Of a stretch of 64,000 nucleotides of DNA, positions 11,128 through 49,786 are shown one piece after another (positions within the stretch are counted from its first letter, which is position 1; each line of letters starts with the position of its first letter). A program made the translations under genes and the position numbers. The stretch is from Viola odorata. Lineage: Eukaryota > Streptophyta > Magnoliopsida > Malpighiales > Violaceae. Below the pieces are notes generated by a model that saw only the letters and a list, made by a program, of their open reading frames with translations, had not been told where the DNA came from and did not search any database. The stretch is taken from positions 40,507,917-40,571,916 of the forward strand of contig OY829544.1 of assembly GCA_963691705.1 (NCBI GenBank). Reading direction: 5' to 3'.

Positions 11128-11944
11128 ACACATGTAAATATCTTCCTCCAAGTCACCATGAAGGAATGCAGTCTTCACATCTAGTTGCTCAACTTCTAGG
11201 TCCATACTAGTTGCTAGGCCTAGAACAGCTCGAATTGAACTATTCTTCACTACTGAGGAGAAAATCTCGTCAAAGTCAATTCCTTTCTTCTGCGTAAATC
11301 CCTTCACCACTAACCGAGCTTTATGCTTTATGACTTTGTCCTCATCTTTCTTTAGCTTGTATACCCATTTATTTTTCAAAGTCTTCTTGCCTTTGGGTAG
11401 AACAACAAGCTCATAGGTCTGGTTCTTATGCAATGAACTCATCTCTTCTTGCATTGCCTTCATCCACTCATCTTTCTCGGGATGAGACTGAACATCATGG
11501 AAGCTCTCTGGCTCCCCCTCGTCAGTTACCATGACCCATTCTGATTCTGTGTACCTTTTGTTCTTGGTGATTGGCCTCTCATATCTGCTAAATATTTGTG
11601 GTGAAGGTTCTACAGCTAGAGGTCCTGGTACTAGCTCTCCTGGTGGGACAGGCTCTGGTGGTTGGGGATAACCATCTTGCTCTACATCTGCCCCCACTCC
11701 TTGCTCAGCACCTTCCATTTCACCTTCGTACCCATCGCCTTCTTGGATCTCTCCTCTGTCATCCACTTCAAGGGTTGGAGGAGGTACTGATGTGGTTTTA
11801 GGCACTCTACAATCTCCACTGGATTCTTCTGGAACCTTCGAGTCTTTGAAGAACTCATTCTCGCGGAATACCACATCTCTACTCCTGATGATCTTCTTCT
11901 TTACTAGATCCCAAAGTTTGTAGCCAAATTCTTCATTTCCATAC
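11128..11944 (-). pseudogene. Element D integrase C-terminus and start of RT
   Basis: The minus strand encodes a copia integrase tail (FGYKLWDLVKKKIIRSRDVV, then FRENEF) and an acidic proline-rich linker. The copia RT start follows with WMKAMQEEMSSL, LKNKWVYKLKKDEDK, YKARLV-like HKARLVVKGFTQ and VEQLDVKTAFLHGDL. The frame is open from 11874 to 11125 and ends at the target site where E and then C inserted, right after the codons for EDIYM. The catalytic YVDD part would lie beyond the left edge. It is truncated and not expressible. Confidence 0.9.
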
Positions 11945-12501
11945 TGATAACAATCCGCCTATCGGCAAGGGCATTTTCGTCTTACACCCTGAGAAGAGGG
12001 TACAACTACTGTTCCTACCGCAAAGACAACATCGAGGCTATCGCCTCCCTCTATGTGACTGACGTTGGGATGGTCGACATCAGCGGGGGGGTCTTGCACT
12101 CAACACTGTTATAACAGACGGCGCTACCCCATCCCAGTCCAAGACAAGTTTCTCGTTTGGGGTGTAGGCATTGCCTCACATAGGTAACACCTACCCCGAT
12201 AGCTCACTCCACCAACGGGGAATTCTAACCCCCTCCAACGGGAGCGTTAGCCCCCTATGATCCAGATCACTCAGAAACGCTCCATTTTCATCTATAAATA
12301 CTTCCCCCACAAAGGAGGAAGGTAAGTACGAATTACTGGCCCAAGCTCTGCCAAATTCACTACACATACTGACTTAAGCATCGGAGTGTTTCCGCCGGAG
12401 ACCCCCTCCGGCGTATTGCAGGTACTGCGGACCGTCGTGGACACTGATCTGAGAGGACCAATTTCTCCATATATCCTTCGGCAGAAGACAAATTCTTATC
12501 A
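11945..12501 (+). repeat. 5' LTR of element B
   Basis: 557 bp with TG...CA ends. Partner at 26035-26591. A short run of g (cagcggggggg) and repeated accccc/ccctcc motifs precede the TATA box. Confidence 0.95.
12293..12300 (+). promoter_or_regulatory. TATA box of the element B 5' LTR
   Basis: catctataaatacttccc is a canonical plant TATA box about 210 bp before the LTR end. The same sequence is at 26383-26390 in the other LTR. Confidence 0.75.
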
Positions 12502-12504
12502 AAT

Positions 12505-12522
12505 TGGTGCTTTCGTTGAGAG
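12505..12522 (+). promoter_or_regulatory. Primer binding site of element B, tRNA-Thr type
   Basis: Three bases after the LTR, tggtgctttcgttgagag is complementary to the 3' end of plant tRNA-Thr (as I recall it, ctctcaatgaaagcacca) with one mismatch. Confidence 0.7.
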
Positions 12523-12529
12523 TGTTGGT

Positions 12530-14548
12530 TCTAAGTGAGCATCCTTAATAACCAAGCTCCTTCCTCCCCGAAACTAGAAGGGTTATGGCCTCGGAGTCAG
12601 ATCCCGCGCTGTCCCAATCCTCCAACATCCCCTACAACACCCGCCGATGACTTTTTGCTTTCGCTACCTCTGATATCTCTACCCAGTGCAAGATGTCACT
12701 GTGGGAGAATCAGATCCTCCTCCTGGGCAAAGTACGGAAGAAATTACCTTCCAGATTTGTTCCCCTTTTTCCCACATAGCGGGAACTAGTCATTCTACCC
12801 CCCAAGTAAGTAGATCCGCGATAGGCAAAGCAAACAACCCTTTCGCAAGCTCAATTGGATCAGTTGACAAAGATGGCTGCTAGATTTACTCCTCATGCCT
12901 CGAGACCTGGTGTGTCCTCCCAAGTAATTTTCACTCCGTCCATTGTCAACGAACGACCATTATCGTCCTGACAATCTGGGGGACTCCCGTCCTCCTTACC
13001 TTTCTCATCGGCCCCCATAAATGTCCTGCCGCTCACGCGTGGACCTGTTGAACATTCTGGACAGTACAGGGGGGAAATCCCTATCCCTGAGGTAGCCCGC
13101 CGATGTGATGAGTACAGAGAACACTGGGATGATCGGTGAGGGGAGATATTCCGAGAACAATCTCCTAGATACAGTGAGAGATCTAGCAGCAGAGGTCGAC
13201 GAGCTCGAACTCCAAGAAGCCGCAGTCGATCTCCCAGGCGGCATCAAGAATATGACCCTCTGAATCCCAGATATGACGTTGAAATTCCACACCCGCATCA
13301 GCCTCGTGGGGTCCCTGATGTTAACGCTGGCCATCCGTTCAGTTACCGTGTCAGGCACCACAGGGTCCATCGGCATGTGAAACTCCCTGCAGAATCATAT
13401 GATGGCACGAAAGATCCCATTTCTCACCTCAATAAGGTGAAAGACTTTGTGCAATTCCAAACCCGCAGTGATGCTGCATTATGTTAGATCTTCGTAATGA
13501 CGCTGTCAGGAGTGACACGTCTTTGGTTTGAGGGACTCCCGTCCGGGTCTATTGATAATTTTTCTCAACTGGAAGAAAAATTCAAAAGTCGGTTTAGCAC
13601 GGCTATTCCTATCAGGAAGTCAGCAGCTGCACTATTCGATATTCATCGAAACCGCAGGAATCATTGAACGACTTTTTAGGTCGATTTGATCTTGAAATGT
13701 CCCTAACGCCAGGGGTCACTATTGATTTTGTGGTTGAGGCCCTGAAACGCAATTGTCGATACGGAAAATTGAGAGACACGTTAACGGTGGACCCGCCGTT
13801 AACCCTGGATGCGTTGAGACTAAAAGCGCATAATTATGCGAGGATGGAAGAGGAGGAAAATAGAGAATGGATTCGAAACATGCCAACGGACCCATACTTG
13901 GCCCCTAACGCCCCGCATAGCAGCGCCCCTGACACGCGACCCACTGAGGATCATGGATAACGAAAAGAGCATACTGCCAAGGCCTCTAACCGGCAGAGAG
14001 GCAATTTCTCGAAAGGAAGACCCGGAGGGTCCCCCACTTGGAAACAAGCAGATCCGCCAAAGGGCCGGATATATGATCCTGACCTTCCATCTCTTATACT
14101 CCCATGGGTGGAAATCCTAGCGATAGTCCAACAGCAAAATCTGCCCATTCGATACCCAGCTCCTGTGAAGCCAGGAGTGATCATGGGGGGAAGGGAAAAC
14201 GCGTATTGCAAGTTCCACAAGGTCAAGGGACATTCGACAGATGTATGCAGAGAACTGAAATTGGCCATAGAGCGATTGGTCGAAGAGGGCTACCTTGGAG
14301 AATTTGCCACCAAGGCAAGAGAAGGAGCCAGGAACAACCCAACTGGAATGACAACTGACCAGAGGCAAACGCCTTCACACGCCACAGGGGCTAACGCAAT
14401 TCCCCTTGGACAGAATAGAGAAGCTCTCGTTGTTCATAGCGATCAGATGCCTATGATTAATATCATCGCAGGGGGAACACCCTACTTCGAGGAGTCCATG
14501 CCACAAACGGCCAATCCTGGAGAAAAGCGCAAACGAGAGAACGCGTAG
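12530..14548 (+). pseudogene. Element B gag remnant
   Basis: Pieces of a Tat-type Gag are readable in changing frames. PAESYDGTKDPISHLNKVKD and WFEGLPSGSIDNFSQLEEKF lie at about 13390-13590, then a stretch open from 13664. At 14108-14548 there is an atypical knuckle CKFHKVKGHSTDVC followed by RELKLAIERLVEEGYLGEF, a common Tat Gag ending. Several stops and at least two frameshifts separate the pieces. The first about 700 bases (12530-13250) hold no recognisable domain. Gag is clearly inactive. Confidence 0.8.
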
Positions 14549-14581
14549 GTAAAAATTGAGGCAATCAGTGCCTTAGACAGA

Positions 14582-15451
14582 ATGATATTGTCCTTCTCAG
14601 AAGAAGACGAAAAAGGCATTGTTTTCCCGCATAACGACGCATTGGTAGTAACACCCGTCATTGGAAGTCACGGGGTGAGAAGAACCCTTGTTGACAACGG
14701 GAGCGCAGTAAATCTATTTTCGTTGGAAGTATACAACTTGATGAAACGCCCTGACGGCGAGCTAGCGCCATGCATGAGGCCAATTATTGGGATTGATGGG
14801 GTACCGATTCCGGAAGCCGGAATAACATCCTTGCCAGTGTACTTCCGAGAAGACACCTCCAAGCGATCTGAAGAGCTATTATTCCTGGTCGTGGACCTAA
14901 CGTTACCATATAACGCCATACTGGGGTGACCGTTCCTCAATCGTTTCGGGGCAGCGATATCCCAAAAACACCTGCGGATGAAATACCCCTCATGGGACGG
15001 CGTGGTCTCAATCAAAGGAGACCAGAAACTGGCAGCTGAGTGTTATTCACTTATGACTCAAAGGAGTTGTGACCGCTACGTTTGCGTGGCAGACGATCCT
15101 TTCGACGATAAAGAAGAAAAACGCACTCAGCCGCTAGATCAGATGATGTCAATGCCTATCGGTGAGGACAGTGAAGCGAATCTCTTGGTCAGTGAGAAAC
15201 TGAGCCCCGAAGAGAACGTGCAACTAACCCGGCTGTTAAGAAAATGCAAGGGAGAATTCGCATGGAAACCAGCGGACATGCCCGGAATCTCGCGAGAAAT
15301 TGCGAAACATCGACTAAACGTTAGCCCTAATGCCAAGCCTATTCAGCAGAAACGACGTGCTTTTTCATCAGGGAAAGTGGCAGCTATCGAGAAAGAGTTA
15401 CTAAAACTCATGGATGCGGGGTTCATCCGAGAAGTCCAATACCCAACCTAG
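14582..15451 (+). pseudogene. Element B protease and start of RT
   Basis: The first frame (14582-14929) is the aspartic protease with TLVDNGSAVNLF near residues 36-47 and the ILG flap end. It is stopped by TGA (927-929) where the family has ILGRPFLN, a CGA-to-TGA change. The next frame (14978-15451) covers the linker (PADMPGISREIAKHRLNV) and RT entry (LLKLMDAGFIREVQYPT). It is stopped by TAG at 15449 where the family has Trp (TWLANPV), a TGG-to-TAG change. Confidence 0.85.
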
Positions 15452-15463
15452 CTAGCTAACCCG

Positions 15464-16906
15464 GTGTTAGTTCCAAAGCCCAGCGGAGATTGGCGCATGT
15501 GCATCGATTTCACCGACCTGAACAATGCTTGTCCCAAAGATTGCTATCCCCTTCCTCGAATTGATCAGTTGGTCGACCAAACTGCTGGATACGCTTATTT
15601 AAGCTCCCTAGATGCCAACTTGGGGTATCACCAAATCCCTATGGCCATAGAAGACGAAGAAAAAACTGCCTTCATCACCCCTAGGGCTACATATTGCTAC
15701 ACCGCAATGCCGTTCGGGCTGAAGAATGTCGGGGCAACGTTCTAGGGCATGGCGAATAAGGTTTTCGAAAAGCAAATCGGGAAAAATGTAGAGGCTTACG
15801 TGGATGATATCCTGATCAAAAGTCGAAGCTTCAAAGACCACCTTGCTGACTTGGAAGAAGTTTTCAATGTGATGAAAAAGTACAAAATGAAGTTGAATCC
15901 ACGAAAGTGTATGTTCGCATTCCAAACGGGTAAATTCTTGGGCTACGTGGTCAGCCGGAAGGGTATCCAACCCAACCCTTCAAAGATAAAGGCCATTCAG
16001 GACATGATATCCCCTCGGACCGTCAAAGAAATACAGAAGCTCACTGGCCGCATCATCGCGTTAGGACGGTTCATATCTAAGCAAGGCGAGAGATGCCTGC
16101 CTTTTTTCAAGGTCATTCGAAACAAGGCCCCATTCGGGTGGACAGAGGAATGTGAAAATGCGTTTGCAGGGCTGAAATCTTACTTGTCATCCGATCTAGT
16201 GCTAACGAGGCCTGAGTCCGGCGATGAACTATATCTATACTTGGGAGTAGCTGACGAGGTAGTCAGCGCCGTCCTTGTGCGAAGTGAAGGGCATGTACAC
16301 CGCCCTGTATTTTTTGTTAGTCACATATTGAAAGATGCTGAGCTGCGATACGCTCGCATCGAGAAGATAGCGCTTGCCCTAATACAGGCAACGCAAAAGA
16401 TGGACCGATACTTCCAAGCCCACCCTGTCACTGTGCTCACTGATCAGCCGCTGAGAAAAATCTTTAGAAAGCCTGAGTCTTCAGGGAGGATGTTGATCTG
16501 GGTAATCGAGCTCGAACAATGCGGGCTACAGTACAAAGCCAGACAGGCAATCAAAGCCCAAGCGTTAGCAGACTTCATAGCGGAATGCACATTCACCAAA
16601 GATGCGTCGGCAAACCTGTCAGAGGAAGAACCAAAAAATTCATGCCTACCGTTCCCGAAAACATTAGCGGACTCATGGGTTATTCATGTGGACGTAGCAA
16701 AAAATCAAGAGCTAGCAGGTGCAGGTATTTTCCTGGTGGGACCAGACGGCATGGAAATGCGATACGCCATCAGAATCCTGCAGCCGTTATCCAACAATGC
16801 CGCTGAATACGAAGCGCTGCTGGCAGGACTCAGAATTGGAAACAGCTTCTCCGTCGAAGCCTCTACCGTTGCGGAGGAGGAATGCGGCTTGCGCCTAAAA
16901 ATATGA
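15464..16906 (+). pseudogene. Element B RT, RNase H and start of second RNase H
   Basis: RT motifs VLVPKPSGDWRMCIDFTDLN, LSSLDANLGYHQIPM and MPFGLKNVGATF are followed by TAG (15743-15745) where a Gln is usual (CAG to TAG). After the stop come the catalytic YVDDILIKS and the thumb (FLGYVVSRKGI). A Ty3-type RNase H follows (LYLYLGVADEVVSAVLVR; its usual first Asp is replaced in LYLYLGVA). From about 16670 a second, archaeal-type RNase H begins with SWVIHVDVAKN and AAEYEALLAGL. It ends in TGA at 16903. The second RNase H marks the Tat lineage. Confidence 0.88.
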
Positions 16907-18436
16907 GGAGACTCTAAATTGATAATGGATCAAGTCCTAGGAAACTCCCAAGCCCGAGAACCCATCATGATTCAATACTTGGCCAAAGTAAAGCGTGAGC
17001 TGTCGGAGATGCAGAGAAAAGGCACTCGGGTCACCTTTGAACATATCCCTAGAGAAAATAATAAAGAGGTTGATAGCCTCGCCAAGATGGCAGCCAACGT
17101 GGAAGCCTCCATACCCAACGAAGTGCACTACGGGGAGTTATCCACACCCTCTTTCATGGAAGAGCGAGCATCGTTTTGTGTGGAGGAAATAGAAAGTGAC
17201 TGGAGAATCCCAGTGGTAGAATATCTGAAACATGATAGGCTACCGGAAGAAATTACGGAAAGAAGGAAAGTCCTGAAACGGGCGGCGCGATGTACATATT
17301 ACAATGGAGAGTTAATACGGAGGTGCTTCTCCCACCCAGCCGCTAAATGCATAACGGAACAAGAAGGTTTGTATGTGTTGCGAGAAATTCACGAAGGGAT
17401 ATGCGGCATGCACATCGCCAGCGATACACTGGCAGCCCAAGTCTTTCGGTTGGGATTCTACTGGCCCACCATACGAGGAGATTGCCATAACTTGGTGAAA
17501 ACCTGTCAGAAATGTCAGGAATATGCTAAGATTCCTCGAAAACCGGCCGTGCAAATTTCAGAAATAATCGCTCCATGCCCGTTTGCCAAATGGGGCATTG
17601 ACATTTTAGGCCCGTTTCCAAAGGCTAGATCTCAGTTGAAATTCGTGGTCGTGGCGGTAGACTACTTCACAAAATGGGCCGAAGCCGAGGCGTTAGCCAC
17701 CATCACCACTGAAAATTTTTGGCATTTTTTCAAACACCAAGTCATTATGCAATTCGGGGTGCCGCGCATACTAGTTAGCGACAATGGAACATAGTTCACA
17801 AGCCAATTCTTCAGTGATCAGTGTGCGGAATTTCAGATCGAACAAAGGTTCTCTTCCGTGGCGCACCCTCAAACCAATGGCCAGGAAGAAGTAACCAACC
17901 GCAGCATCCTTAGTGGCATCAAAAGAAACCTGGAAGGTTCCAAAAAGAAATGGCCAGATGAACTGCCATACGTACTATGGGCCTATCGCATGACTGTCAA
18001 GGCCAGCACTAGAGAGACCCCGTTTGCGTTAGCATTCGGAACCGAAGCTGTCACACCGGTTGAGATCGGAACGATGAGCCTTCGGGTGGCTCATTTCAAA
18101 GAAGAAAATAATGAGGGAAGGTTACGTGCTAACCTTGACGCCCTACCGGAAACACATGAGGAAACTCTCCTGAAAACTATGCACTACAAAAGAAAAATGG
18201 CACAATACCACAACCGGCAAGTGAGAGAGCGATTGCTCAAAGCTGGAGATTTAGTGCTCAGAGATAGACGAGCGGCAGGGCAACGCATGGGAAAACTCAG
18301 CCCAAACTGGAATAGACCGTATCGCGTCACCCGTGTCGTGGGAAGAGGAGCTTACCACTTGGAAATGCTCGATGGAATGCCCCTGCATAACTCTTGGAAT
18401 ATAGCTCGGCTGAAGCTATACCACACCAGGAACTAG
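16907..18436 (+). pseudogene. Element B second RNase H end and integrase
   Basis: After the TGA the frame continues with GDSKLIMDQVLGN and the last RNase H motif EVDSLAKMA. The integrase zinc finger (FYWPTIRGDCHNL, then CQKCQEYAK) and core follow (WGIDILGPFPKA, ILVSDNGT). It is broken by TAG at 17792 in place of Gln (NGTQF). The remainder to 18436 carries the catalytic Glu region (QTNGQEEVTNRSI), WAYRMTVKAST and the C-terminal GAYHLEMLDG ... SWNIARLKLYH. The four in-pol stops upstream and this one are all single C-to-T or G-to-A changes, so pol is otherwise nearly complete. Confidence 0.88.
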
Positions 18437-18523
18437 CCCATCCTATCTGGTAATATCAATGCTATTCTAACAAGTTATATTTTCCTGTGCGTTTGCTGTT
18501 GATAAAATGCAGATAAGTGAAGA

Positions 18524-18602
18524 ATGCCAGGAGTGAAAATCCTATCCTTGTGATGGCTGGTCCTGATCAGACAGCTCACTAAGACGAGGCACGCCCTGGC
18601 AT
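18524..18602 (+). other. Structured unit 1 (type I)
   Basis: Closing stem atgccagg (18524-18531) with cctggcat (18595-18602), eight pairs. The apical part gtgatggctg ... cagctcac forms gtga/tcac and gctg/cagc. Confidence 0.75.
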
Positions 18603-18611
18603 GGATAAGCA

Positions 18612-18685
18612 TTGGGAGTGAAAATCCTATCCTTGTGGTAACCGTGCTCACATAGACGGCCCATTAAGACGAGGCACGACCCCAA
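18612..18685 (+). other. Structured unit 2 (type II)
   Basis: Closing stem ttggg (18612-18616) with cccaa (18681-18685), five pairs. Apical hairpin ccgt/acgg. Confidence 0.7.
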
Positions 18686-18691
18686 ACGCCC

Positions 18692-18764
18692 CCGGGAGTG
18701 AAAATCCTATCCTTGTGGCAACCGTGCTCACATAGACGGCCCATTAAGACGAGGCACGCCCCGG
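18692..18764 (+). other. Structured unit 3 (type II)
   Basis: Closing stem ccggg (18692-18696) with cccgg (18760-18764), five pairs. Apical hairpin ccgt/acgg. Confidence 0.7.
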
Positions 18765-18766
18765 TA

Positions 18767-18846
18767 TCCTTGGGAGTGAAAATCCTATCCTTGTGGCAAC
18801 CGTGCTCCCATAGACGGCCCATTAAGGCGAGGCACGACCCCAAGGA
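18767..18846 (+). other. Structured unit 4 (type II)
   Basis: Closing stem tccttggg (18767-18774) with cccaagga (18839-18846), eight pairs. The inner pair is ccttgt/gcgagg. Confidence 0.75.
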
Positions 18847-18861
18847 GAGACCAACTCCGTC

Positions 18862-18934
18862 CTGGAAGTGAAAATCCTATCCTTGTGGTAACCATGCTCA
18901 CACAGACGGCCCATTGAGACGAGGCACGTTCCAG
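18862..18934 (+). other. Structured unit 5 (type II)
   Basis: Closing stem ctgga (18862-18866) with tccag (18930-18934), five pairs. Here the last stem base is A paired with T, where the other units have G with C. The apical hairpin has one mismatch (ccat/acgg), a CG-to-CA change. Confidence 0.7.
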
Positions 18935-18951
18935 AGACGCGAGGTTTCAAC

Positions 18952-19028
18952 GCTTGGGAGTGAAAATCCTATCCTTGTGATGGCTGGTCCTGATCAGACA
19001 GCTCACTAAGACAAGGCACTCCCCAAGC
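18952..19028 (+). other. Structured unit 6 (type I)
   Basis: Closing stem gcttggg (18952-18958) with cccaagc (19022-19028), seven pairs. The inner pair ccttgt/acaagg is fully Watson-Crick, and the apical hairpin is as in unit 1. Confidence 0.75.
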
Positions 19029-19487
19029 CAATCTTCGACGAAAGGAAGGAAAGGATACCCCAGCTAGTAACTGAGCGGGCGATACCCGGTGAAGTAAGGC
19101 TGGAAAGGCATCCATACTGTAACAACACCGTCGCAGCAGGCCTAACGGGGCAAGAAAGCTTCCCCTAACAACAGGGAGCGGCATGAATGTGAGCAACGTC
19201 GATTCATTCTTAGAAATGCTATCAGAGGGCAATGATAAGGCCATCAAAAAGGCGGCCGAGGAACCTGTACGAAAAGACATGCGAGAGCAAAATGGGCATA
19301 TCTACTGAAACGCGGCAGCAAACGCCACGGGTGAATAGTCGCGCAAGCAGTATTATGAAGCAAAGTAGACAAGGAAATTCCGTTCAAAAGGGGTGGCCTA
19401 ACCAAGGCAATGAGTGATATTGTCAATATTACAAAACAAGGAAGGGCTCAGTAGCAGCAAAAATCAGAATACATCTAAACTCAAAGC
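19029..19487. other. Spacer between the array and the antisense genes
   Basis: No coding or RNA feature is recognised. It is G/A-rich with a few short repeats, and it would contain the 3' ends of both the pol-side and the antisense transcription units. Confidence 0.5.
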
Positions 19488-21312
19488 CTAAGGAGTGGAC
19501 GGTGCATTGGTTCCTCCTTGCTGTTGCGATTTCCATTGATAGAAGCCGTTATCAGTAACAGTGGAGATTCTCCTATCAAAATACGCGGAGAGATCATCAA
19601 TACAGAGTTTTTCTACCCCATAATGATGCATCAAAGCCTCTGACATGAGCCCTCCGCCTTCCTTCAAGTACCACTGGTTCTTCTCAGCGTTTAGAGCAAG
19701 ATCGGCAGATAGCTCGGCATTCCTCTGCCTCTCCTAACGCAACTCATTCTCCTCCCGAGAAAGGCGTTCGATCATATTGGCACTCTTCCGTTTCTCCTCC
19801 TCCAGAGCAAGCTTGACAGCCTCTAGCTCTTGCTTAACAGTCGTCACCTCCTGTCGGACAGTCTCTGTCTCTTGGTTGGCAACGTTAAGGGCATCCACAA
19901 AACTCTGTCGCTCGTTCAGCAACCTGTTTATCTCTCCCTGTCCGTTTGCTACGACCCTAGCATTCTCCTCATCCAAGTAATGGAGATGGCAGAATACAGA
20001 TAATGCTTGGGAGCGAAGAAAGTTTATACGCTCCTAGCCGCGAAGGCATCCCTCTCCCTTGGAAGAGACATAATTTCGGCCGCCAGATAAGAGGTAGACG
20101 AGAGGATGGTATCGTGATTAGCCTCGGCAGGAAACTGCAAAATGTTGTCCCTGAAGGAGCGCAAACTAAGATGATGAGTAGGCATGAGGGGAGGACTATA
20201 ATGAGAGAGGTACTCCGATAGGAATGAATGCATACCTGGGTGACTGATGAAACAAGAGGTACTCCGATAGGAATGGGATCAGCTGTCGCCCCCGAACAAA
20301 TAACAGTTTGGGAGGAAATGGGTTGCGTGACATGTGTTTTCCTCGCCCTTCTCTTCCTTGCAACAAGGGTGCGAGGAGGCGGCGATTGGGTAGTGCCCGT
20401 AGCGGTAGCAATGTTTTCTCCTTCTGCAGCAGCAGCAGCAGCCCTGGCTTCGGCTGCAGCTTTCTTCCTTTGTTCCTGTTTCCTTTTCCTCCGGAAATAC
20501 TCAGGCTCCCAACCAGGCGGAGGCACTGCACAGTTACAGAAACGTTAGCGTTAGTACCTCTTGGCAATACAAAAGAAAAAGGTCAAACGCTCACCCTTCT
20601 TGCACTGTTCCATATCCAGACCGTTAGCCACTTTTCGGGCATCAACGCTGAAATCTAGTTGAAGTAGCGTCTTCAACCAGCCATCTTCTGGATCAGAAAG
20701 GGGTTTCCGATGGCCCCAAGCTCCATCTTTAATTTTCTCATTGAAGCCGGCCCTCCATAACGGCTCGGGCAAATCAATAATGAAAATTTCTTCTTTCTAA
20801 TGAGGAACAGAAGACTCGATGCCCATAAGCTTCCAGATAAAGGGCTTCAATGAGCCATCTTCATAACGAGGGGATATTGATATCACCCCCTTACGAGAAT
20901 ACAACTGGAAAATGTCATGAAGCAAGGCCAAAGTGGGAGACTCGATCCCCTTAAAACGGCACAGTGCGGCAAAGGCACTAACAACGCAAATCACGTTAGG
21001 GCTCAACTGAGCCGGAGCCAAATCAGAATCAGCCAACAGCAACTTGACAAGCGGGTCAAGAGGAAGATAAAACCCATGATCAAACAACTTAGCATACAAT
21101 ATTCTACTGTTACCGGGCAGAACGCTGTTCAGGTGAAGTAATTCAGAAGCAGCGCGCACGGGATATTCTTTGGGAAATCGCGCATTGCACTCAGCAAGCT
21201 TGCGATTAACTAAGGGCAGAGTATAGAGAGAAGTGGGGGTAATATTAATTTTTTCTTCCCCGGCGGACCCTTGAGGATCCCCTTCCTCGGAAGGCTTCTT
21301 AGTTTTAGCCAT
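19488..21312 (-). pseudogene. Antisense gene 4: spliced gypsy-type transposon protein, copy II
   Basis: It starts at the Met at 21312 (MAKTKKPSEEGDPQGSAGEE). A globular domain follows (SRILYAKLFDHGFYLPLDPL, DLAPAQLSPNVICVVSAFAA) that resembles the plant 'putative gypsy type transposon' family (Pfam Transposase_28, from memory). After a TAG at 20797 (CAG to TAG likely) it continues to a donor gtgagc (20594). With the acceptor tgtgcag the 69-nt intron 20594-20526 joins in frame to a basic Ala-rich exon (EPEYFRRKRKQEQRKK). Further in-frame exons are likely: donor gtatgc at 20235, acceptor ttttgcag into FPAEANHDTILSSTSYLAAE, then ENARVVANG. It ends in a long coiled coil (VTTVKQELEAVKLALEEEK) and a tail to TAG at 19488. 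Function unknown. Two in-frame stops (20797, 19734) make it a pseudogene here. Confidence 0.75.
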
Positions 21313-21477
21313 GCCCAAATAAAGAGAAGTGACGAGGAAAGAAAGGGTGTGTACCTTCGCAAAGAGAATACCAATAGTCTCAGACCATAAAGAGAGAGCG
21401 GCGCGAGTTATTTGTCCAAAAGGCAGCAGCGTGCTAGAGAGGAGATTAAAAAAGAAAAATGAGGAGGAGAAAACATC

Positions 21478-21485
21478 ATATATAA
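21478..21485 (-). promoter_or_regulatory. TATA-like box of antisense gene 4
   Basis: The minus strand reads ggttatatatgatg about 165 bp upstream of the Met at 21312. No experimental start is known. Confidence 0.45.
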
Positions 21486-21967
21486 CCCTGAAAGGGCGTG
21501 ACCAATCAACAATGGACACATGGCAAAGCAGCGCGTCGGGAAATAGGGCACGCGCAAGAAGGTACAAGTTTAAAAGCAATAATGAAACGCTTCAGCGTTC
21601 GTGTCTCTTTAGAAGATGTTTTCTTCAAGTGGCTCTTTGTGGAAAGACACGTGTCTTTTTCCATCATTACCTTTCAAAGTGCATTAAATGGAGGGACTGC
21701 GGCATTTAATGACCTAAAAAACAGGGCTGGCCTCGCCAAACGGCGCGACGACACAAGGAAGATAGTGAAGAAATAACGGTAGCATCACAATGATTCACGC
21801 AAGTGCGATAAAGGCTACGTAGCGTCAGCATTATTACAGAAGGAATAATGTCAAATGGTTTTCAGGAAAAAATAAAAGGAGGCAGACAACAACAAGAATA
21901 ACAAGGGAGGGTCCAGAAACCGTTGTGGCACTTCTCGAAAAGCAAAGCGGCGCCCCAATCGTTGACG
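21486..21967. other. Intergenic spacer in the antisense cassette
   Basis: No gene is seen between antisense gene 3 and the TATA-like box of gene 4. It should hold the 3' end of gene 3 and the promoter of gene 4. Confidence 0.5.
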
Positions 21968-24079
21968 TTAGCCCCTTTCCCCTTCTGGGGCAGAAGGACC
22001 AATCCCGCCTTTGCTAACCTCATCCATCACGGTAGAAATATAATCAACAACCTGGGTAGGGTCATAAGAATTACCCTTGAAACGGGTTGTGAATCCAGAA
22101 ACGAAGACTTCCAAGACCTTCTTCTTCCACCATTCCTCCTTTAATGATGTCCTATCGGACTCCTCGTCTCGAGCTGATATCTTTTCGCGAAGGAGATTTT
22201 TCTTCTTCTCCAGCGCAAACTCTGCCTCTAGAACTTCCATCTTTGCTTTCCCGACAGACCTCTCTCTGTTCAATTCTTTCTGCGACTCATCGCAGAGACG
22301 TGTTAGCAACCTTGTCTGGTCTACCACTTTTTCAAGCTGCACTTTCTTAACACACAATGCTTTGGAGAAATTGCGTGACTCGCGATCATGAATCTCGAAC
22401 AGATAGTTCAGGTGACGGAAGAAATCCAGAGAATCATTCATCATATGGCGGAGATGAGCCGTCGGAGGAAGCTGAAGAAATTTCTCCTTCTCCTTCTGGG
22501 AGCCCAGCATCTCCCCTATCAAAGGCGCAGTAAACTCGTCTCTGGAAAAAGGTTGGGGAACCCCGACAACACGAAGACCATCAAAGCAGAATCCCTTCAA
22601 ATTCATACGATAGGACGGGGTCTCGTTAGGGCCGCCATAAGAAAGATTGATTGAGGGAGCCGGAGAAGAACTCTGGGAAAAAACATTCGTGATGGGAGAA
22701 AAGAACAGTTGTGGAAGGGGTTTAGGCGGTAGCCCAGCAGCTGAAACCGCAACAGAAGACGTGGCCACTACGTCAGGAATGCAATGAGAAATCAGAGAAT
22801 CGGGAGCGTCAACTGTAGGAAGAGGACATGTCGTCGGTGGGACCTCTGCCTCGATAGAGCAAGTGGCAGCCGACGCCTCAGTAACTTTCACCGGTTGGGA
22901 GGCACTCGTCTCAGGCGAAACGGCAGGAATGGGAGCAGTCGCTGCATCTACAGAAGATGTCCCGGTGGCCCGCTCGTTCGTGGCCAATCGAGGTTTTTTC
23001 TGGCGCAAGGAAGAAGCGTGACAAAGGTCCGATTTGACATCCACATCCTCATCGTCACTAGCAATCACCCTCATTGCGGTTGGGCTGGAGTTCGTCCCCT
23101 TGCGACGATCTGGTAGCCAATCTTCCACAAAGCGAGAAGCTCGGGCAGAGCTGACGGGCCTCCGCCCTCCCCGGGAAACCGTCATGACTCTCCTCCTCGG
23201 GGGTCGAGCGCTACCCTGATTGGAGCCCTCGGCAGGGGGGGAGGCTGGTAAAGTTTGAAGTGACGTTACATTTAAAGGAGCGCCAGCGTCACCTGGGAGT
23301 TAACCGTTAGCATCTTATAACAAAAGAAACGCGCAAAGATAAAAATAAAGAGAGCGCGGAAAGAGGCAGACTCACCCATAGCACACTCCTCCAGAGGCTT
23401 GAAAAAAGCAAAGTCACGGATGCGGTAGTGAGTATCTTCGTCTAATAGGGCGTTAGCTTGCTCTAACTCAGCCCTGGTCAATATCGAAGGATTCGACCAA
23501 ATGGGGCCTATCAGTTCCTAGTTGAAATTAAGACGCCAGAAAAGTGACGGTAGCTCCAGAACAAAGAAACTGCTTTTCCAATCAGCCACACCCTTCTTAA
23601 AGTCGTGAAAACGCTACCAGAACGACTGCACGAACGCGTCATCCCATCGAGGAGTAATTTCGATTAAACAATTATGGCAATTCATACTAAAGAATTTGCG
23701 AAATAAATTGAGATGAGGTAGAAATGTTCTTCAACTCGCAAGCGCGAAGAAAAGCATAAACCGCACACCAGGAAGAGGGAGTTATCTGGGCAGGATTAAG
23801 GTTATACTCCCGCAGCAGCGTTAGTATCGATTCATGAACAGGAAAACGGAAACCGTAAAGGAACATCTTAAAGTAAAGAAGCCTACTGTGACCCTACGCC
23901 GGATTATGGAGCCGCATATCACTTCCAGGGGCAAAAGGCTCATACCCAGGAGGAAAGGTAATACCATGTTCCTCCAGTTCGGCTTTCAGAACCACATCGC
24001 ATGTAAAAATACTGGGTGATTGCGCGACCTCCGGATCCATGGGTTTCCAGATAACCTGGCGAGGTCTATTTCTAGCCAT
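21968..24079 (-). pseudogene. Antisense gene 3: spliced gypsy-type transposon protein, copy I
   Basis: It starts at the Met at 24079 (MARNRPRQVIWKPMDPEV). After a TAG at 23894 the frame goes on with SRLLYFKMFLYGFRFPVHES and LNPAQITPSSWCAVYAFLRA, which aligns block by block with antisense gene 4. Frame damage follows (23500-23700), then EDTHYRIRDFAFFKPLEECA. An intron 23375-23293 (donor gtgagt, acceptor ctcccag) joins G/GT exactly in frame to the next exon (DAGAPLNVTSLQTLPASPP). That exon runs through MTVSRGGRRPV, low-complexity Ser/Ala/Pro, a coiled coil (KKVQLEKVVDQTRLLTRLCD, LEAEFALEKKKNLLREKISA) and a helical tail ending at 21968. Function unknown. It looks like a tandem duplicate of gene 4. 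Confidence 0.75.
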
Positions 24080-24570
24080 AATAAACCAGCAAAAAGGAAA
24101 TCTGAGAAGGATTGAATTGGTACCTTGAAAGGGAAGATTTACAGAGGAATCGGCGGACGATGACAGGCGGCCGAAAAGATATTCGGGGAAGAAGACGAAG
24201 GAAGATAAGAGGAAAAATTCGAAGCAAGGGCAAAAGTTTTGAAAAAAGAAAATGGCCCTTCTTAAAGGATTAAAATGCCACCGCATTAATTGAGCCACCA
24301 ATCACGCGGAGACGCGTGTAAAAAGAAGTTGAACACGTGGAAGCGCATTAAAGAAATTTAAAAAAGAGAAGTTATTCGTCGTGATTCCCCAAAAGGGCGA
24401 CAGAGTTGACCCAGTCAAAGTAACTATGAAACGATTGCCCCGGCAAGGCCCACCGCTTGCGTTGGCTGTCAACAAGACCAGCAGGCTAATGGAAAATAAC
24501 GACAAAAGAAAAAGGCAGAAAACATCATCTCATTCATAAAATGCCAATAGGCATATACAACACAAAGGCG

Positions 24571-24953
24571 TTAATCCTCATCAGCCCAGTCCGCGTCATA
24601 GCAATAATCATAGTCCTCCGGGGACGATGGTAATCCACTGTTGTAGGAAAGGGAATACTCGACAGGTTTAGGCACAAGCTTTGTCGCGTGGGCTAACTAA
24701 GAGCCTCTTTCTCGAAAAGAGGAGGAAGGGCAGACGGTGACGTCTCATCACCTTTCGATAGCATCAGGTAGTGGGGCACAAAGCCGGCAAAGAAGGACTC
24801 AAAGGTCTGCTTCTTCACTTTCACTGGTTTCTTGCGACCCTGGCGACTGGCAATACACTTGGTAGGTCTCCACGGTGGTGTCAGAGGAGAATCATCCGAA
24901 TCCGGCGAAGTCGGAGGAGTTGGCAAGGAATCACGCCTGTAAAAACCTGTCAT
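24571..24953 (-). pseudogene. Antisense gene 2: small basic-then-acidic protein
   Basis: The Met at 24953 (MTGFYRRDSLPTPPTSPDSD) opens a Pro/Ser/Asp-rich start, a basic patch (RQGRKKPVKVKK) and FESFFAGFVPHYLML. A TAG at 24693 interrupts it (one C-to-T change from CAG). Reading continues in frame to an acidic tyrosine-rich end (PSSPEDYDYCYDADWADED) with TAA/TAG near 24571. The total would be about 127 residues. A TATA-like box lies about 70 bp upstream. I recognise no family. The basic patch could be a nuclear localisation signal. Confidence 0.55.
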
Positions 24954-25020
24954 TCCAACCTGCAAAAAAGCAAGGAGAAGGAAAGGATGAAGATGAACAG
25001 GGAAAGGGGAAAGCATTTCC

Positions 25021-25029
25021 CTTAAATAG
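25021..25029 (-). promoter_or_regulatory. TATA-like box of antisense gene 2
   Basis: The minus strand reads cggctatttaagggaa about 70 bp upstream of the Met at 24953, the usual plant spacing. Confidence 0.45.
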
Positions 25030-25275
25030 CCGAGGAAGCGCTCCGATCCCCGAGCGGATCCTGAGAAATCAATTAAAATGCCTGGGAAAAATAACCGCAA
25101 TAGCAGAATCTGATCCGACACCAGCATACCTGCTCACTAAATGCGCCAATCAAAAGGCACCAAGTAACCACCCAACCACTTACCCCTGGAGAGGCGGCTT
25201 TGGAAACAGTTGAGTCAAAACATTCATTGCTAATACCCGGAACACAACCACTGAAATGGTACATCTCGAGGAAGA

Positions 25276-25294
25276 CTCATTTTCAGTTGGGCTT
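25276..25294 (+). repeat. 19-bp copy of the sequence bordering the 3' LTR
   Basis: ctcattttcagttgggctt occurs here and again at 26015-26033, one base before the 3' LTR. The second copy occupies the place of the polypurine tract, although it is not purine-rich. The nearest purine-rich run is cgggggaagaggg at about 25977-25990. Confidence 0.8.
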
Positions 25295-25456
25295 GCCACC
25301 AGCATATTCAGCCAAAGCAGCAAGAACATAAACGAGAAAAAAGAAGACTGGGAAAAGGTAAAAATAACCATTTATTTATGGCCTGAGTGGCCTTAGCGTT
25401 CAGATATGTACATGGAAGCATAAGAGAGAAGCAACAAGAGGAAACAAAGGCAGCGG

Positions 25457-25840
25457 TCAGGCATTGGACCCAGCATCATCTTCCCCTGGCACGACGGGAA
25501 TATCCCTCAAAGCGTCAGTGACGGAGGTCAGCTCAGCCGAGCAGGCCCTCATGCCCTTCAGGCAGCAGGCCAGTAAGTCCTTCCTCTGCCGCAACATCGA
25601 GGCAACCACATCAAGGTGAGCAGTGGTGGTGGCCATCTTCGCCAAGCTCTCCAAAGGACTAAAGTCCTCCAAAGATACTCCCAGCTGTTTAGACAAAATA
25701 GGGGTCAATACCCCCTGTAGTTCCAGGACATCCTCTGAGGTCTTGGTGATCATCCTCTCCAGGAAGCCGATGTCCCCTTCAGTAAGGTTTTTCAAGGTCA
25801 AGGTTTTAGAGATCAGGAAATTTCGGGTCAGCTCATCCAT
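25457..25840 (-). CDS. Antisense gene 1: small helical protein, unknown
   Basis: An intact 127-residue frame runs from the Met at 25840 (MDELTRNFLISKTLTLKNLT) to the stop at 25457. An earlier Met (25903) would add 21 hydrophobic residues, but the TATA-like box at 25902-25909 favours the later start. Composition suggests an all-helical protein (FLERMITKTSEDVLELQGVL, VVASMLRQRKDLLACCLKGM) with an acidic tail (VPGEDDAGSNA). No family is recognised. It is the promoter-distal member with respect to pol and the only antisense gene without a stop. Confidence 0.6.
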   Translation of the reverse strand: MDELTRNFLISKTLTLKNLTEGDIGFLERMITKTSEDVLELQGVLTPILSKQLGVSLEDFSPLESLAKMATTTAHLDVVASMLRQRKDLLACCLKGMRACSAELTSVTDALRDIPVVPGEDDAGSNA

Positions 25841-25901
25841 GGCGAAATATGAAAAAGAAAGGGACGAGAAAATGCGAAGAAACTTACGAAGAAGAAACTT
25901 C

Positions 25902-25909
25902 AATTTATA
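25902..25909 (-). promoter_or_regulatory. TATA-like box of antisense gene 1
   Basis: The minus strand reads gcctataaattgaag, a good plant TATA box about 65 bp upstream of the Met at 25840. Confidence 0.5.
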
Positions 25910-26034
25910 GGCCCTGACAAAAACCGTCCGAACTACCTTCTGATAAGGAAACGCTCCGATATATGGAAGAGCACCTCGGGGGAAGAGGGCGTTAGCCCTT
26001 GGTAAACACTCGGGCTCATTTTCAGTTGGGCTTA

Positions 26035-26591
26035 TGATAACAATCCGCCTATCGGCAAGGGCATTTTCATCTTACACCCTGAGAAGAGGGTACAACTACT
26101 GTTCCTACCACAAAGACAGCATCGAGGCTATCGCCTCCCTCTATGTGACTGACGCTGGGATGGTCGACATCAGCGGGGGGGTCTTGCACTCAACACTGTT
26201 ATAACAGACGGCGCTACCCCATCCCAGTCCAAGACAAGCTTCTCGTTTGGGGTGTAGGCATTGCCTCACATAGGTAACACCTACCCCGATAGCTCACTCC
26301 ACCAACGGGGAATTCTAACCCCCTCCAACGGGAGCGTTAGCCCCCTATGATCCAGATCACTCAGAAACACTCCATTTTCATCTATAAATACTTCCCCCAC
26401 AAAGGAGGAAGGTAAGTACGAATTACTGGCCCAAGCTCTACCAAATTCACTACACATACTGACTTAAGCATCGGAGTGTGTCCGCCGGAGACCCCCTCCC
26501 GCGTATTGCAGGTACTGCGGACCGTCGTGGACACTGATCTGAGAGGACCAATTTCTCCATATATCCTTCGGCAGAAGACAAATTCTTATCA
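26035..26591 (+). repeat. 3' LTR of element B
   Basis: 557 bp, same ends as 11945-12501, followed directly by the duplication catac. Nine differences from the 5' copy were counted by eye, mostly G/A or C/T. TATA box at 26383-26390. Confidence 0.95.
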
Positions 26592-26596
26592 CATAC

Positions 26597-27585: not shown

Positions 27586-28512
27586 TGTTGATACCCGAAT
27601 TTTGACGCCATTTTTAATTAATTTTAGCATTTCTGTTAATTAGTTAATTTACAGTCATTTTCAGTTGATTTACTGTCGCTAGCATTTTTAGGTGTTTCGT
27701 TGCATTTTAACATCGTCAGCTTTCGAAATCGCATTTTTAATTTTTCATCACGTATTTTCATTATTATTATCATTATTATTTTTAGACTTAAAAATCACAT
27801 TTTTAATTATCCGGCAGTCGTTCGCTAGTTTTTTCTTCATTTTAGGTCATCACATGAATTTTAGGACTTTTAGTTTTTTAGCGCATTTTTTAGTATTTTT
27901 ATTATTTTATTATTATTTTCGTTCGAGCTTTTATTGGACCCGAGTAAGTTCGCTCGGACAATAGCTTGACTTTGAAATATTTTCCATAAACTAGTTGCTA
28001 GCTTTTTTTCCGTTCGCAACGGTCTACAGCGTTTAGTGTAATTTTCGGCGTAACGTCATTATTTTTCCGTCCGAACGTTTCACGTTTTTGAACAAGAAAA
28101 TAAACACGTTAAACGGAAAATTTTCATTATTCGCTGTAGACGGTTAAACCCGTCGTATTTTTCTCTACGCGACGGTACCTTCGGCTCGAAAATTCGGAAC
28201 GTTTGTTCGCAGGAACCAGCTCGAGGCCATTTAAATCAGATAAAGGGCCATTTAATCATGGTCGTTGATCTGGTCAACCAAGGAAAGTCAACCAGATCAA
28301 CGGCCCTTGAATTACCTAGCATGGTGCACATGCACAGTGGCCGTGGAGTGCAGCGAAGCAGACCACCAGGATTACCTGCTCCCGTCGCTTCCTAGCTCAA
28401 GCCCGTAGCTTCCTATCCCGTCCAGTCATCATCACGGCTCCCCTAGCCCCGCCAGCGCACGCTCACGGCCACCACGCGCAGCCCTCGTCCCCGAAGCACG
28501 CGATCCTTTGCC

Positions 28513-28520
28513 TATAAATA
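28513..28520 (+). promoter_or_regulatory. TATA box of the element A 5' LTR
   Basis: gcctataaatacaagc is a canonical TATA box following a GC-richer promoter stretch. The same box is at 46902-46909 in the 3' LTR. Confidence 0.75.
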
Positions 28521-29614
28521 CAAGCTTTCATCCTTCGTAAAAAGGGTCCAATTTTTTTTGCAGAAGATGGCCACTACCCCTCTCCATTTTCCTTGCCAAT
28601 TCATGTACTGCTGAACCCCATTCCTTGCGCTCGATCCCCTCCTCTCTCGGCAAGCACTGTAAGCTTTTTCTCTCTCTCTAGCTTGTTGTTTCTTTCTTTA
28701 ATTTTCGTTATTACTTTAGATAATTAGTTAATTGCTTAAATTTATCCCAATTGCTTTAGTTTTAAGTTAATTTCACCACACTAGCATTGATTAAACTATT
28801 CGAACATTTAAAGTATTTATTTACTAATTAAACGGATTAATGCGCATTATTGCTGCTGTTGCATTTGTCACTGTTTGGTTGGGATTTATCTTGCTGTGAT
28901 CGCATGTTTGCGTTGTTGGAAGGGAGAGGTTTCTTTCGGGCCAAGAACCAGGCGAATTGGTCGCCTGGTTCGTCACTTCCGTCGCCGGCAGTGGCGCCGG
29001 CGACGTGAGGTTGAAGATGATGATGATATGGGCCAAATGGCCTTCGTGCAAAAAAATAAAAGAAAGGTGATGGGCTTGGCCCATCACCGTTAGAATTAAT
29101 TTTCTTGGGCCAGGAATTGTTCCTGGCCCATTCCTCCAAATTTTAAGTTGGGCCCAGCCCATTTATACTTTTTTCGAATCTTTGGTTCGTTAATTTTTTC
29201 ACGTAAAATGCTCGCACGCTTCGTATAATTATTCTTCATGATACGGGTTTATTTTTCCTATGTTGTATACATGGATTGTTTAGTTCATTTTTTTAAATAT
29301 TCGTATGCTTTCTTTATTTATTTACTTTCTCACATGCTATTTGGTTGAACATTCCTATGCTTTTAATTTCTCGTATGCTTTCAAATTCTTACATGCTTTT
29401 ATTTAAATTCTCATATACTTACATGCTTAATTTCTCTTATGCGCTGTTTCCCCGATCATATTTTTCGTATGTTCATTCTTGCGTCAACCGGTTTATTTAA
29501 TTATTTTTTTATATATATATACCTGAATTGCTTATTTCTTGTCGTGACATTTATTTTTATGTTATTTAACTTCAGTCATTTATATTTAGCAATTTAATTT
29601 CAGTCATTTAACTT

Positions 29615-30180
29615 ACCGCCTATATGGTCGGTTGTCATTTAACTTTCTGCAAATTATCAACTGCTTTTAAATTTTCGTAAATGTTCAACTGCTTTAATTT
29701 TTCGCAAACTGCTGGAAATCCTTCCGCAAATTATCAACTGTTTAATTATTCGCACTTTCAAATTCCGCAATTTACTTTCGGCAATTTAAATTCAATTATT
29801 CATTTTACCGCCTATATGGTCGGTCATATTTTAATTCTCGTAAATATCCAACTGCTTTAAATTTTCGTACTTATCATACTGCTGGAAATCCTTCCGCAAA
29901 TTATCAACTGTTTAATTTTCCGCACTTTACTTTTCCGCACTTTAAATTTTCCGCAATTTACTTTCTGCAATTTAAACTCAATTATTCATTTTTACCGCCT
30001 ACATGGTCAGTCGTATTTTAATTCTCGTAAATATCAGCTGCTTTAATTTTTCGCAAACTGCTGGAAATTCTTCCGCAAATATCAACTATTTATTTTCTGC
30101 AAATATCAACTGTTTTATTTTCTGCAAATATCAATTGTTTTATTTTCCACAACATCAACTGTTTTATTTTCTGCATTATC
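29615..30180 (+). repeat. About 190-bp tandem repeats inside the element A LTR
   Basis: accgcctatatggtcggt recurs at 29615, 29807 and 29994 (spacing 192 and 187). Between these lie repeated fragments ctgctggaaatccttccgca and atcaactgtttaatt. The 3' LTR has the same set at about 48002, 48193 and 48381, so the repeats predate this insertion. Confidence 0.8.
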
Positions 30181-49781: not shown

Positions 49782-49786
49782 GCTAG

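What the first reader, a model, noticed from the sequence alone, without database searches (positions are those of the whole stretch)
18524..19028. Six-unit array of covarying stem-closed repeats after pol in element B
Each unit has the same core (gagtgaaaatcctatccttg ... aagacgaggcacg), but the flanking stem differs every time and always pairs: atgccagg/cctggcat, ttggg/cccaa, ccggg/cccgg, tccttggg/cccaagga, ctgga/tccag, gcttggg/cccaagc. The inner pair ccttgt/acgagg is also kept, changing only by g.u to a.u (acaagg). Two apical hairpin types (gctg/cagc and ccgt/acgg) replace each other. Compensatory change at three levels argues for selection on RNA, or single-stranded DNA, structure rather than a plain minisatellite. 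Tat elements are known to have variable tandem repeats here, but I know of no described structured unit of this type. The role (packaging, 3' end, transport, stability, self-cleavage) is open.
Basis: partly seen in the sequence, partly recalled or inferred. Interest (0 to 1): 0.93.

Follow-up and report, generated by a model that had tools for sequence, protein, structure and literature searches.

The report
RNA hairpin array guarding retrotransposon RNA
Just after the polymerase gene of an estimated 1,900 jumping-gene copies in one plant genome lies a row of repeats, six in this copy, whose flanking letters change in matching pairs as in RNA hairpins under selection; the row likely protects the element's long RNA from the cell's decay machinery.

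Summary
Six units (18524-19028), each with a core of exactly 60 nt, are closed by arms that differ and always pair: of 720 ways of matching 5' to 3' arms only the real one reaches the observed pairing. The host genome (699 Mb) was searchable: 8,141 exact core matches, 0 in the control. I read 61 arrays (312 units) and 59 diverged units in loci reached through pol. They show compensatory change in the outer arms and in an inner helix. The core changes little on internal branches and more on terminal ones (p = 4e-11): purifying selection. Six-unit arrays run type 1, four of type 2, type 1; the first core lies some 80-135 nt after the pol stop in 72 of 81 loci. [quoted passage not shown] The structure is well supported; the function is inferred. 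Rivals: export element, dimerisation signal. No Rfam match; no description found in my searches.

The parts
11945..12501 (+). 5' LTR of element B (TGATAACA...TTATCA); target-site duplication CATAC at 11940-11944
   Evidence: blastn self-match of 560 bp at 98.2%; ends read by eye
14978..18436 (+). pol of element B in several open pieces (first piece without a Pfam match; then RT, RNase H, integrase, SH3-like end); last piece 17858-18436, stop codon TAG 18434-18436
   Evidence: ORFs; Pfam RVT_1, RT_RNaseH, Integrase_H2C2, rve (below its cut-off), SH3_Tf2-1
18437..18523 (+). spacer between pol stop and the array (87 nt; 96 nt to the first core)
   Evidence: sequence
18524..18602 (+). unit 1, type 1 (palindromic loop CTGATCAG); arms ATGCCAGG/CCTGGCAT, core 18533-18592
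18612..18685 (+). unit 2, type 2; arms TTGGG/CCCAA, core 18618-18677
18692..18764 (+). unit 3, type 2; arms CCGGG/CCCGG, core 18698-18757
18767..18846 (+). unit 4, type 2; arms TCCTTGGG/CCCAAGGA, core 18776-18835
18862..18934 (+). unit 5, type 2; arms CTGGA/TCCAG, core 18868-18927; weakest fold
18952..19028 (+). unit 6, type 1 (palindromic loop); arms GCTTGGG/CCCAAGC, core 18960-19019
19969..23185 (-). antisense ORFs 19969-20526, 20797-21579 (Transposase_28/TRP28, PF04195) and 21968-23185, convergent with pol
26035..26591 (+). 3' LTR of element B, followed by CATAC at 26592-26596; 7,598 nt lie between pol stop and this LTR

Best explanation
The array is a row of six predicted hairpins, closed by compensating stems and carrying a near-invariant, partly unpaired core, that lies just after the pol stop codon of Retand-type (Tat) plant retrotransposons and likely acts in their sense genomic RNA as a multi-site protein-binding platform that would shield this RNA, with its 7.6-kb 3' untranslated stretch, from nonsense-mediated decay. 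Shown here: the fold is kept by compensatory change, the core (including the unpaired AAAAU and AUC) changes little in lineages that went on copying, six-unit arrays keep the order type 1 - four of type 2 - type 1, and the distance to the stop codon is kept across subfamilies. Inferred: that the RNA, not the DNA, is the active form; that host proteins bind the conserved bulges; that the effect is protection from UPF1-dependent decay, as with the stability element that Rous sarcoma virus carries just after its gag stop.
For: Arms match only their own partners (1 of 720). Positional homologues in 21 arrays (113 of 125 units used) covary within position: total 691.5, permuted mean 667.5, maximum 680.5 of 2,000; by unit 0, 4, 119, 135, 802 and 2,000 of 2,000 permutations reach the observed value for units 2, 4, 3, 6, 5, 1. 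265 distinct units: 90.0% of cells paired against at most 84.1% shuffled; 599 double-change cells against at most 307. 59 diverged units in loci reached through pol: 87.7% paired, 186 double changes against 85 shuffled and at most 82 when slid. RNAalifold recovers five of the eight outer pairs and the inner helices unaided, not the apical stem. Conserved core columns take 28 of 304 internal-branch and 175 of 640 terminal substitutions (p = 3.6e-11); unpaired c4-8 and c12-14 take 0 internal and 11 terminal. Stop to first core: 81-116 nt in 53 of 61 arrays (7 with no pol end found, one with a lost stop at 29 nt) and 110-133 nt in 19 of 20 diverged loci. Sense strand: G.U 131, A.C 65 (core stems 64 to 20) in diverged units; core stems on internal branches 14 to 4. 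Precedent: RSE, 400 nt right after the gag stop, 7-kb 3'UTR, minimal part 155 nt, pol and src 3'UTRs may act alike (PMC5580461 passages; PMC2925335 passages); [quoted passage not shown]
Against: No functional or transcript data at all. In turnip crinkle virus it is an UNstructured stretch of the 3' UTR that protects, and added structure abolished protection (PMC7566565). In a second Retand-like family of the same genome the hairpins lie some 440-715 nt after the stop, not next to it. Being first in the 3' UTR may simply be the first place free of coding. Folding z-scores are modest (sense -2.30, -0.94, -1.50, -2.82, -0.06, -2.75; whole array -1.50 sense, -2.41 antisense). The antisense strand folds lower in 256 of 291 units, though shuffles do so too (125 of 150). 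Apical pairs give A.C 19, G.U 7 and arms A.C 23, G.U 21 on internal branches, which do not favour the sense strand. Only two single pairs pass E < 0.05 in the tree-null test; of the 10 co-substitutions in core stems only 5 end paired, a number the null also reached.
Confidence: 0.4

Rival explanations
1. Nuclear export element: the hairpins recruit export factors (in plants probably TREX parts) so that the intronless genomic RNA leaves the nucleus, as the IAP RTE and MusD MTE elements do in mouse.
For: Conserved unpaired core inside variable stems, several copies, position between pol and 3' LTR; MTE uses kissing loops and type 1 loops are palindromic at both ends of the array; [quoted passage not shown]
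Against: Plants do not use NXF1/TAP (PMC12786077), so the known receptor is absent; no export data; a fixed place near the stop codon is not needed for export.
Confidence: 0.25
2. Dimerisation or packaging signal: palindromic loops CUGAUCAG of units 1 and 6 kiss between two genomic RNAs (or with each other), and Gag binds the array.
For: First unit type 1 in 29 of 29 and last in 28 of 29 six-unit arrays, the 116 middle units type 2 (109) or unscored (7); palindrome of 8 nt in 75 and of 6 nt in 94 of 115 type-1 loops, 0 of 183 type-2 loops; the second family holds GGTCCTGCTGATCAGAC before its array in 7 of 7 loci.
Against: Type 1 was assigned by likeness to that loop, so its retention is partly circular. 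An 8-nt palindrome in a random 12-nt loop has a 2% chance and was met once by descent; of 38 diverged loops that hold GATC or AATCAG, 15 keep only a 4-nt and 2 no palindrome; retroviral dimer signals lie near the 5' end (recalled).
Confidence: 0.15
3. DNA-level or antisense role: the array is the 3' end or insulator of the convergent antisense TRP28 genes, or a binding site for their product.
For: Array lies between convergent coding regions; antisense strand folds lower; TRP28 is predicted to bind DNA (PMC11963269 passages).
Against: The lower antisense energy is a composition effect seen in shuffles; G.U exceeds A.C on the sense strand in diverged units; arms differ in sequence, so no common DNA site there.
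Confidence: 0.1
4. No function: hairpins are bred by reverse-transcriptase template switching, which both multiplies units and makes arms complementary.
For: Unit number varies (2-7) and recombinant arrays exist; tandem repeats here are family-specific and of unknown role (PMC11963269).
Against: Invariance of unpaired core columns on internal but not terminal branches; fixed order of unit types; template switching should homogenise arms (inference), yet arms differ between units and are kept by position.
Confidence: 0.07

Closest known systems
Tandem repeats of the POL-3'LTR region of Retand elements (Vicient 2025, PMC11963269)
   Same: Same place, same lineage mark (antisense TRP28 ORF), arrays of three or more units in about half of the elements surveyed (abstract and passages read)
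   Different: Described there as family-specific repeats of unknown function; the words hairpin, stem and secondary structure do not occur in the main text.
82-bp repeat of Coffea Gypsy/TAT elements (Genome 2022; title seen only in a reference list; paper not held)
   Same: Unit of similar length in the 3' non-coding end of Tat elements
   Different: Sequence and structure not seen; relation unknown
[quoted passage not shown]
   Same: Structured cis-element right after a retroelement stop codon in front of some 7 kb of 3' UTR
   Different: Single element of 400 nt (155 minimal), animal retrovirus, after gag; here a row of repeated units after pol; activity untested
Retroelement export elements (IAP RTE, MusD MTE, viral CTE)
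   Same: Structured elements of unspliced retroelement RNA; conserved loops and 3' position are recalled, not read here
   Different: RTE and MTE act through NXF1 (PMC12786077; CTE recalled), which plants do not use
Retroviral dimer-initiation hairpins (recalled)
   Same: Palindrome in an apical loop (type 1 units)
   Different: Position in the 3' part; palindrome not kept in part of the subfamilies

Membership tests
Retand (Tat) LTR retrotransposons | Two LTRs with target-site duplication | tested here: met
   557-bp LTRs 98% alike, CATAC on both sides
Retand (Tat) LTR retrotransposons | Gypsy pol order RT-RNaseH-integrase | tested here: met
   Pfam domains in that order
Retand (Tat) LTR retrotransposons | Antisense TRP28 (PF04195) ORF between pol and 3' LTR | tested here: met
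   20797-21579 minus, 30.4 bits, cut-off 26.2
Retand (Tat) LTR retrotransposons | POL-3'LTR region of 2,933-6,566 bp in the published survey | tested here: not met
   7,598 nt here; the range comes from a survey of young elements (PMC11963269 abstract) and is not a definition; whether a nested insertion lengthens element B was not tested
Retand (Tat) LTR retrotransposons | RT phylogeny within Retand | not tested
   only similarity search done
RSE-type NMD-protecting element | Lies just downstream of a stop codon followed by a long 3' UTR | tested here: met
   7,598 nt to the 3' LTR
RSE-type NMD-protecting element | Structured RNA | tested here: met
   (comparative, not probed)
RSE-type NMD-protecting element | Protects from UPF1-dependent decay; binds PTBP1 | not testable with these tools
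   needs reporter and pull-down
NXF1-dependent transport element (CTE) | NXF1 binding | not testable with these tools
   plants do not use NXF1 (PMC12786077)
Retroviral dimer-initiation hairpin | Self-complementary apical loop | tested here: inconclusive
   6-nt palindrome in 94 of 115 type-1 loops; 6 nt or more in 21 of 38 diverged loops
Known self-cleaving ribozymes and other Rfam families | Covariance-model match | tested here: not met
   0 matches in the window and in 5 relatives; one chance match at E 3.7 in the relaxed search of the array

The most novel reading that the evidence does not exclude
The 'family-specific tandem repeats' long known after pol in plant Retand elements are a class of structured genomic-RNA elements built on one plan, constant core or loop in hairpins with freely varying stems, here bracketed by two self-complementary loops that would close the array into one domain; families reinvent the core while keeping the plan (second family: constant 13-nt loop TGTCTT[AC]GTAAAC, two stems), giving plant retrotransposons their own cis-acting immunity to RNA decay or their own export signal.
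Probability: 0.3. Interest if true: 0.9.

Novelty: new variant of a known kind. Interest (0 to 1): 0.8.

Why it matters
About half of the surveyed young Retand elements carry tandem repeats after pol, whose function is stated to be unknown (PMC11963269), and such repeats seed satellite DNA (title of PMC7004042, seen in a search listing only). If they are selected RNA structures, a long-standing 'junk' feature becomes a testable cis-acting element, and the question of how plant retrotransposon RNA with kilobases of 3' UTR escapes decay, or leaves the nucleus, can be put to a reporter assay. The covariance model made here (R1) finds 42 of the 59 diverged units at E below 1e-12, the weakest at 0.064, and could be run over other plant genomes.

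Tried and rejected
Antisense as the active strand: suggested by energies, explained by composition. Known ribozyme or other known RNA: no Rfam match. Relatives in viral and bacterial collections: none. Relatives through chance-predicted peptides across the array: none in the one frame tried. The repeat's letters in printed papers: 24 papers hold one of six 11-12-mers, none more than one, none about transposons by title. The claim that no structured unit of this kind is in print rests in a library that lacks most subscription journals. enod40 RNA (PMC10578108, passages) has taken up stem-loops from other repeats; no link to these units was seen. A weak sequence resemblance at 13072-13097 (E 0.074) was not pursued. 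Single-pair significance in a tree-preserving test is thin (two pairs). The P0020 search for a further family did not complete.

Counts and dropped rows: of 312 units, 290 entered the tree (14 with a core not 60 nt, 8 with many mismatches dropped; 282 distinct). One search used 113 of 125 units of the first 21 arrays. For alignment A3 I gave 34 of the 48 units printed (48 chosen as diverse from 182 clean ones); the 14 left out were picked by eye and include some with poor arms, so and model R1 may flatter; one search repeats the count on all 265 distinct units with a two-letter linker (26 with a three-letter linker and 14 with other core length left out) with the same result. One search covered 13 of the 20 loci L079-L098 (7 near-identical copies left out; L091 gave no match) and 5 of the 10 loci L069-L078. 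The first 60 arrays were found through an exact core match in at least one unit, which lowers apparent variation in core positions 1-18; positions 49-60 were not so chosen and show the same effect (17 internal, 99 terminal; p = 7e-6).

Full report
What is there. The window is plant DNA by its content (retroelements whose named pol relatives in the listing are plant proteins). Element B is an LTR retrotransposon at 11945-26591 with 557-bp LTRs about 98% alike, flanked by CATAC. Its pol pieces end with a TAG at 18434-18436; downstream come antisense ORFs, one with a Transposase_28/TRP28 domain, which 97% of Retand clusters carry in a survey of 617 genomes (PMC11963269, abstract and passages). 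Between them, after 87 nt of spacer, starts the array.

The six units. Each has a 60-nt core without any length change; arms of 5-8 bp differ in sequence or length from unit to unit and pair best with their own partner (1 of 720 matchings reaches the observed sum; 0 of 20,000 shuffles). A covariance model built from relatives finds nothing else in the 64 kb at E up to 1; it lists five of the six units, the fourth being left out probably because it overlaps the third by one base.

The genome. The assembly that holds the window (699 Mb, 26 contigs) has 8,141 exact copies of the 18-nt core and none of the reversed control. With 4.3 exact copies per array in the first 21 arrays this is very roughly 1,900 arrays. 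I fetched 60 arrays. Of the first 20, 19 have six units and one has five; in six of them the fourth unit is shortened. With the window, 61 arrays hold 312 units: six in 29, five in 13, four in 14, seven in 1, three in 2, two in 2; the later 40 arrays were chosen for one subfamily. Units are positional homologues: unit k of one copy mostly has the arms of unit k of another, with subfamily differences. In six-unit arrays the first is type 1 in 29 of 29, the last in 28 of 29, and the 116 middle units are type 2 (109) or unscored (7), by nearest loop.

Structure test. Within positions, permuting 3' arms among copies lowers pairing overall (691.5 observed; mean 667.5, maximum 680.5 of 2,000), driven by units 2 and 4; unit 1 hardly varies and unit 5 shows nothing. 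A stricter G-test against tree-preserving nulls leaves two single pairs with E < 0.05, core 21-44 and the innermost arm pair. Counting pairs on all 265 distinct units with the common linker: 90.0% paired against at most 84.1% in shuffles, 599 double changes against at most 307. RNAalifold on 34 units finds five of the eight outer pairs and the inner helices unaided, not the apical stem.

Diverged relatives. A search with a pol protein from another data set led to elements of other subfamilies. Model R1 finds 59 units in 12 of 13 such loci and none in 5 loci of further families. Their cores differ (GTGAAAAGTCC..., AAGTGAGGGCAC, AAGGGAAGGCAC), yet 17 of 24 pairs show changes on both sides, 186 cells against 85 shuffled, at most 82 when slid. 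The alignment was fitted to the structure, which leans towards it. Core pairs 18-47, 19-46, 17-49 and 21-44 all change in step in some units.

Fold. Outer arm (5-8 bp); A opposite 2-3 nt; GUG/CAC; 5-nt bulge AAAAU on the 5' side; CCU/AGG; 3x3 internal loop AUC/ACG; CUU/AAG; bulged U; GUGR/YCAY; short apical stem; loop of 10-12 nt.

Selection. Substitutions in the conserved core columns (1-20 and 49-60) are 28 of 304 on internal branches and 175 of 640 on terminal ones (p = 3.6e-11). Internal branches should mostly record lineages that went on copying; terminal ones mostly decay after insertion. The unpaired AAAAU and AUC took no internal change (11 terminal) while arms took 8.4 per column. Core 1-18 was used to find the arrays, so positions 49-60 are the fairer test: 17 to 99 against 141 to 249 for positions 21-48 (p = 7e-6). 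Changes that break arm pairs on both strands are 15% of internal and 28% of terminal changes from Watson-Crick pairs.

Strand. Antisense units fold lower (256 of 291), but so do shuffles (125 of 150), and diverged units do not (25 of 59). The whole array has z -1.50 in sense and -2.41 in antisense. G.U cells in the sense reading outnumber A.C cells 131 to 65 in diverged units, 64 to 20 in core stems; on internal branches core stems give 14 to 4, arms 21 to 23, the apical stem 7 to 19. On balance the sense RNA, without certainty.

Place. From stop to first core: 81-116 nt in 53 of 61 arrays, one copy that lost its stop at 29 nt, no pol end found in 7; 110-133 nt in 19 of 20 diverged loci, none found in L088 (earlier). 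To the 3' LTR of element B there are 7,598 nt.

A second family. Elements reached with another pol protein have, some 440-715 nt after the stop, 5-7 hairpins with a constant 13-nt loop TGTCTT[AC]GTAAAC and two alternating stems; 38 of 39 such loops in 7 loci have stems of 6-7 bp. The loop with CAG occurs 950 times in the genome, 2 in the control. Before this array GGTCCTGCTGATCAGAC, resembling the type 1 loop GGTCCTGATCAGAC, lies in 7 of 7 loci within what by eye is a hairpin. Two further loci (L075, L076) carry instead 13 and 9 copies of a 42-nt repeat about 100 nt after the stop. So repeats after pol recur with different cores; only the first two are shown here to be hairpins.

How it most likely works. 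Shown: a conserved, selected fold at a kept place behind the pol stop. Inferred: proteins bind the invariant bulges, six sites side by side, and keep UPF1-dependent decay off a message with a very long 3' UTR. Rous sarcoma virus does this with a 400-nt element right behind its gag stop (PMC5580461 and PMC2925335, passages). Against this, a plant virus needs an unstructured stretch there (PMC7566565, passages), and export or dimerisation would explain the anatomy nearly as well; plants do not use the export receptor of the known export elements (PMC12786077, passages). I give the decay shield 0.4; the structured, selected element itself I hold at about 0.9.

Novelty. Rfam has no match in the window or five relatives. 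The survey of Retand elements reports the repeats without structure. My searches found no description; most subscription papers are not in that library. I rate it a new variant of a known kind: cis-acting RNA elements of retroelements are known, this repeated, arm-covarying form in plants is not known to me.

Noticed in passing
L069-L074, L078 (about 1530-1840): Second Retand-like family: 5-7 hairpins with constant loop TGTCTT[AC]GTAAAC and two alternating stems, preceded by a stretch with CTGATCAG; 950 exact loop matches in the genome.
   Followed up: partly
L075 1248-1795, L076 1263-1641: 13 and 9 copies of a 42-nt repeat (CAGCCGTGGATGTAGGTTAAGCCGAACCGCGTTAACAAAATC) about 100 nt after the pol stop of a third group.
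   Followed up: no
L036, L040, L041, L068: Arrays with seven units, or with fused or shortened units, suggesting recombination between units.
   Followed up: no
window 13072-13097: Weak likeness to the unit profile (positions 8-33) in the leader of element B, E 0.074.
   Followed up: no
window 27586-31433 and 45962-49782: A second large element with LTR-like direct repeats of nearly 4 kb, 96-97% alike, and a sense ORF with DUF7745 (31974-32852); model R1 finds no hairpin unit in it.
   Followed up: partly
window 50163-51503 and 54451-55791: Direct duplication of 1.3 kb at 95% identity holding similar minus-strand ORFs.
   Followed up: no
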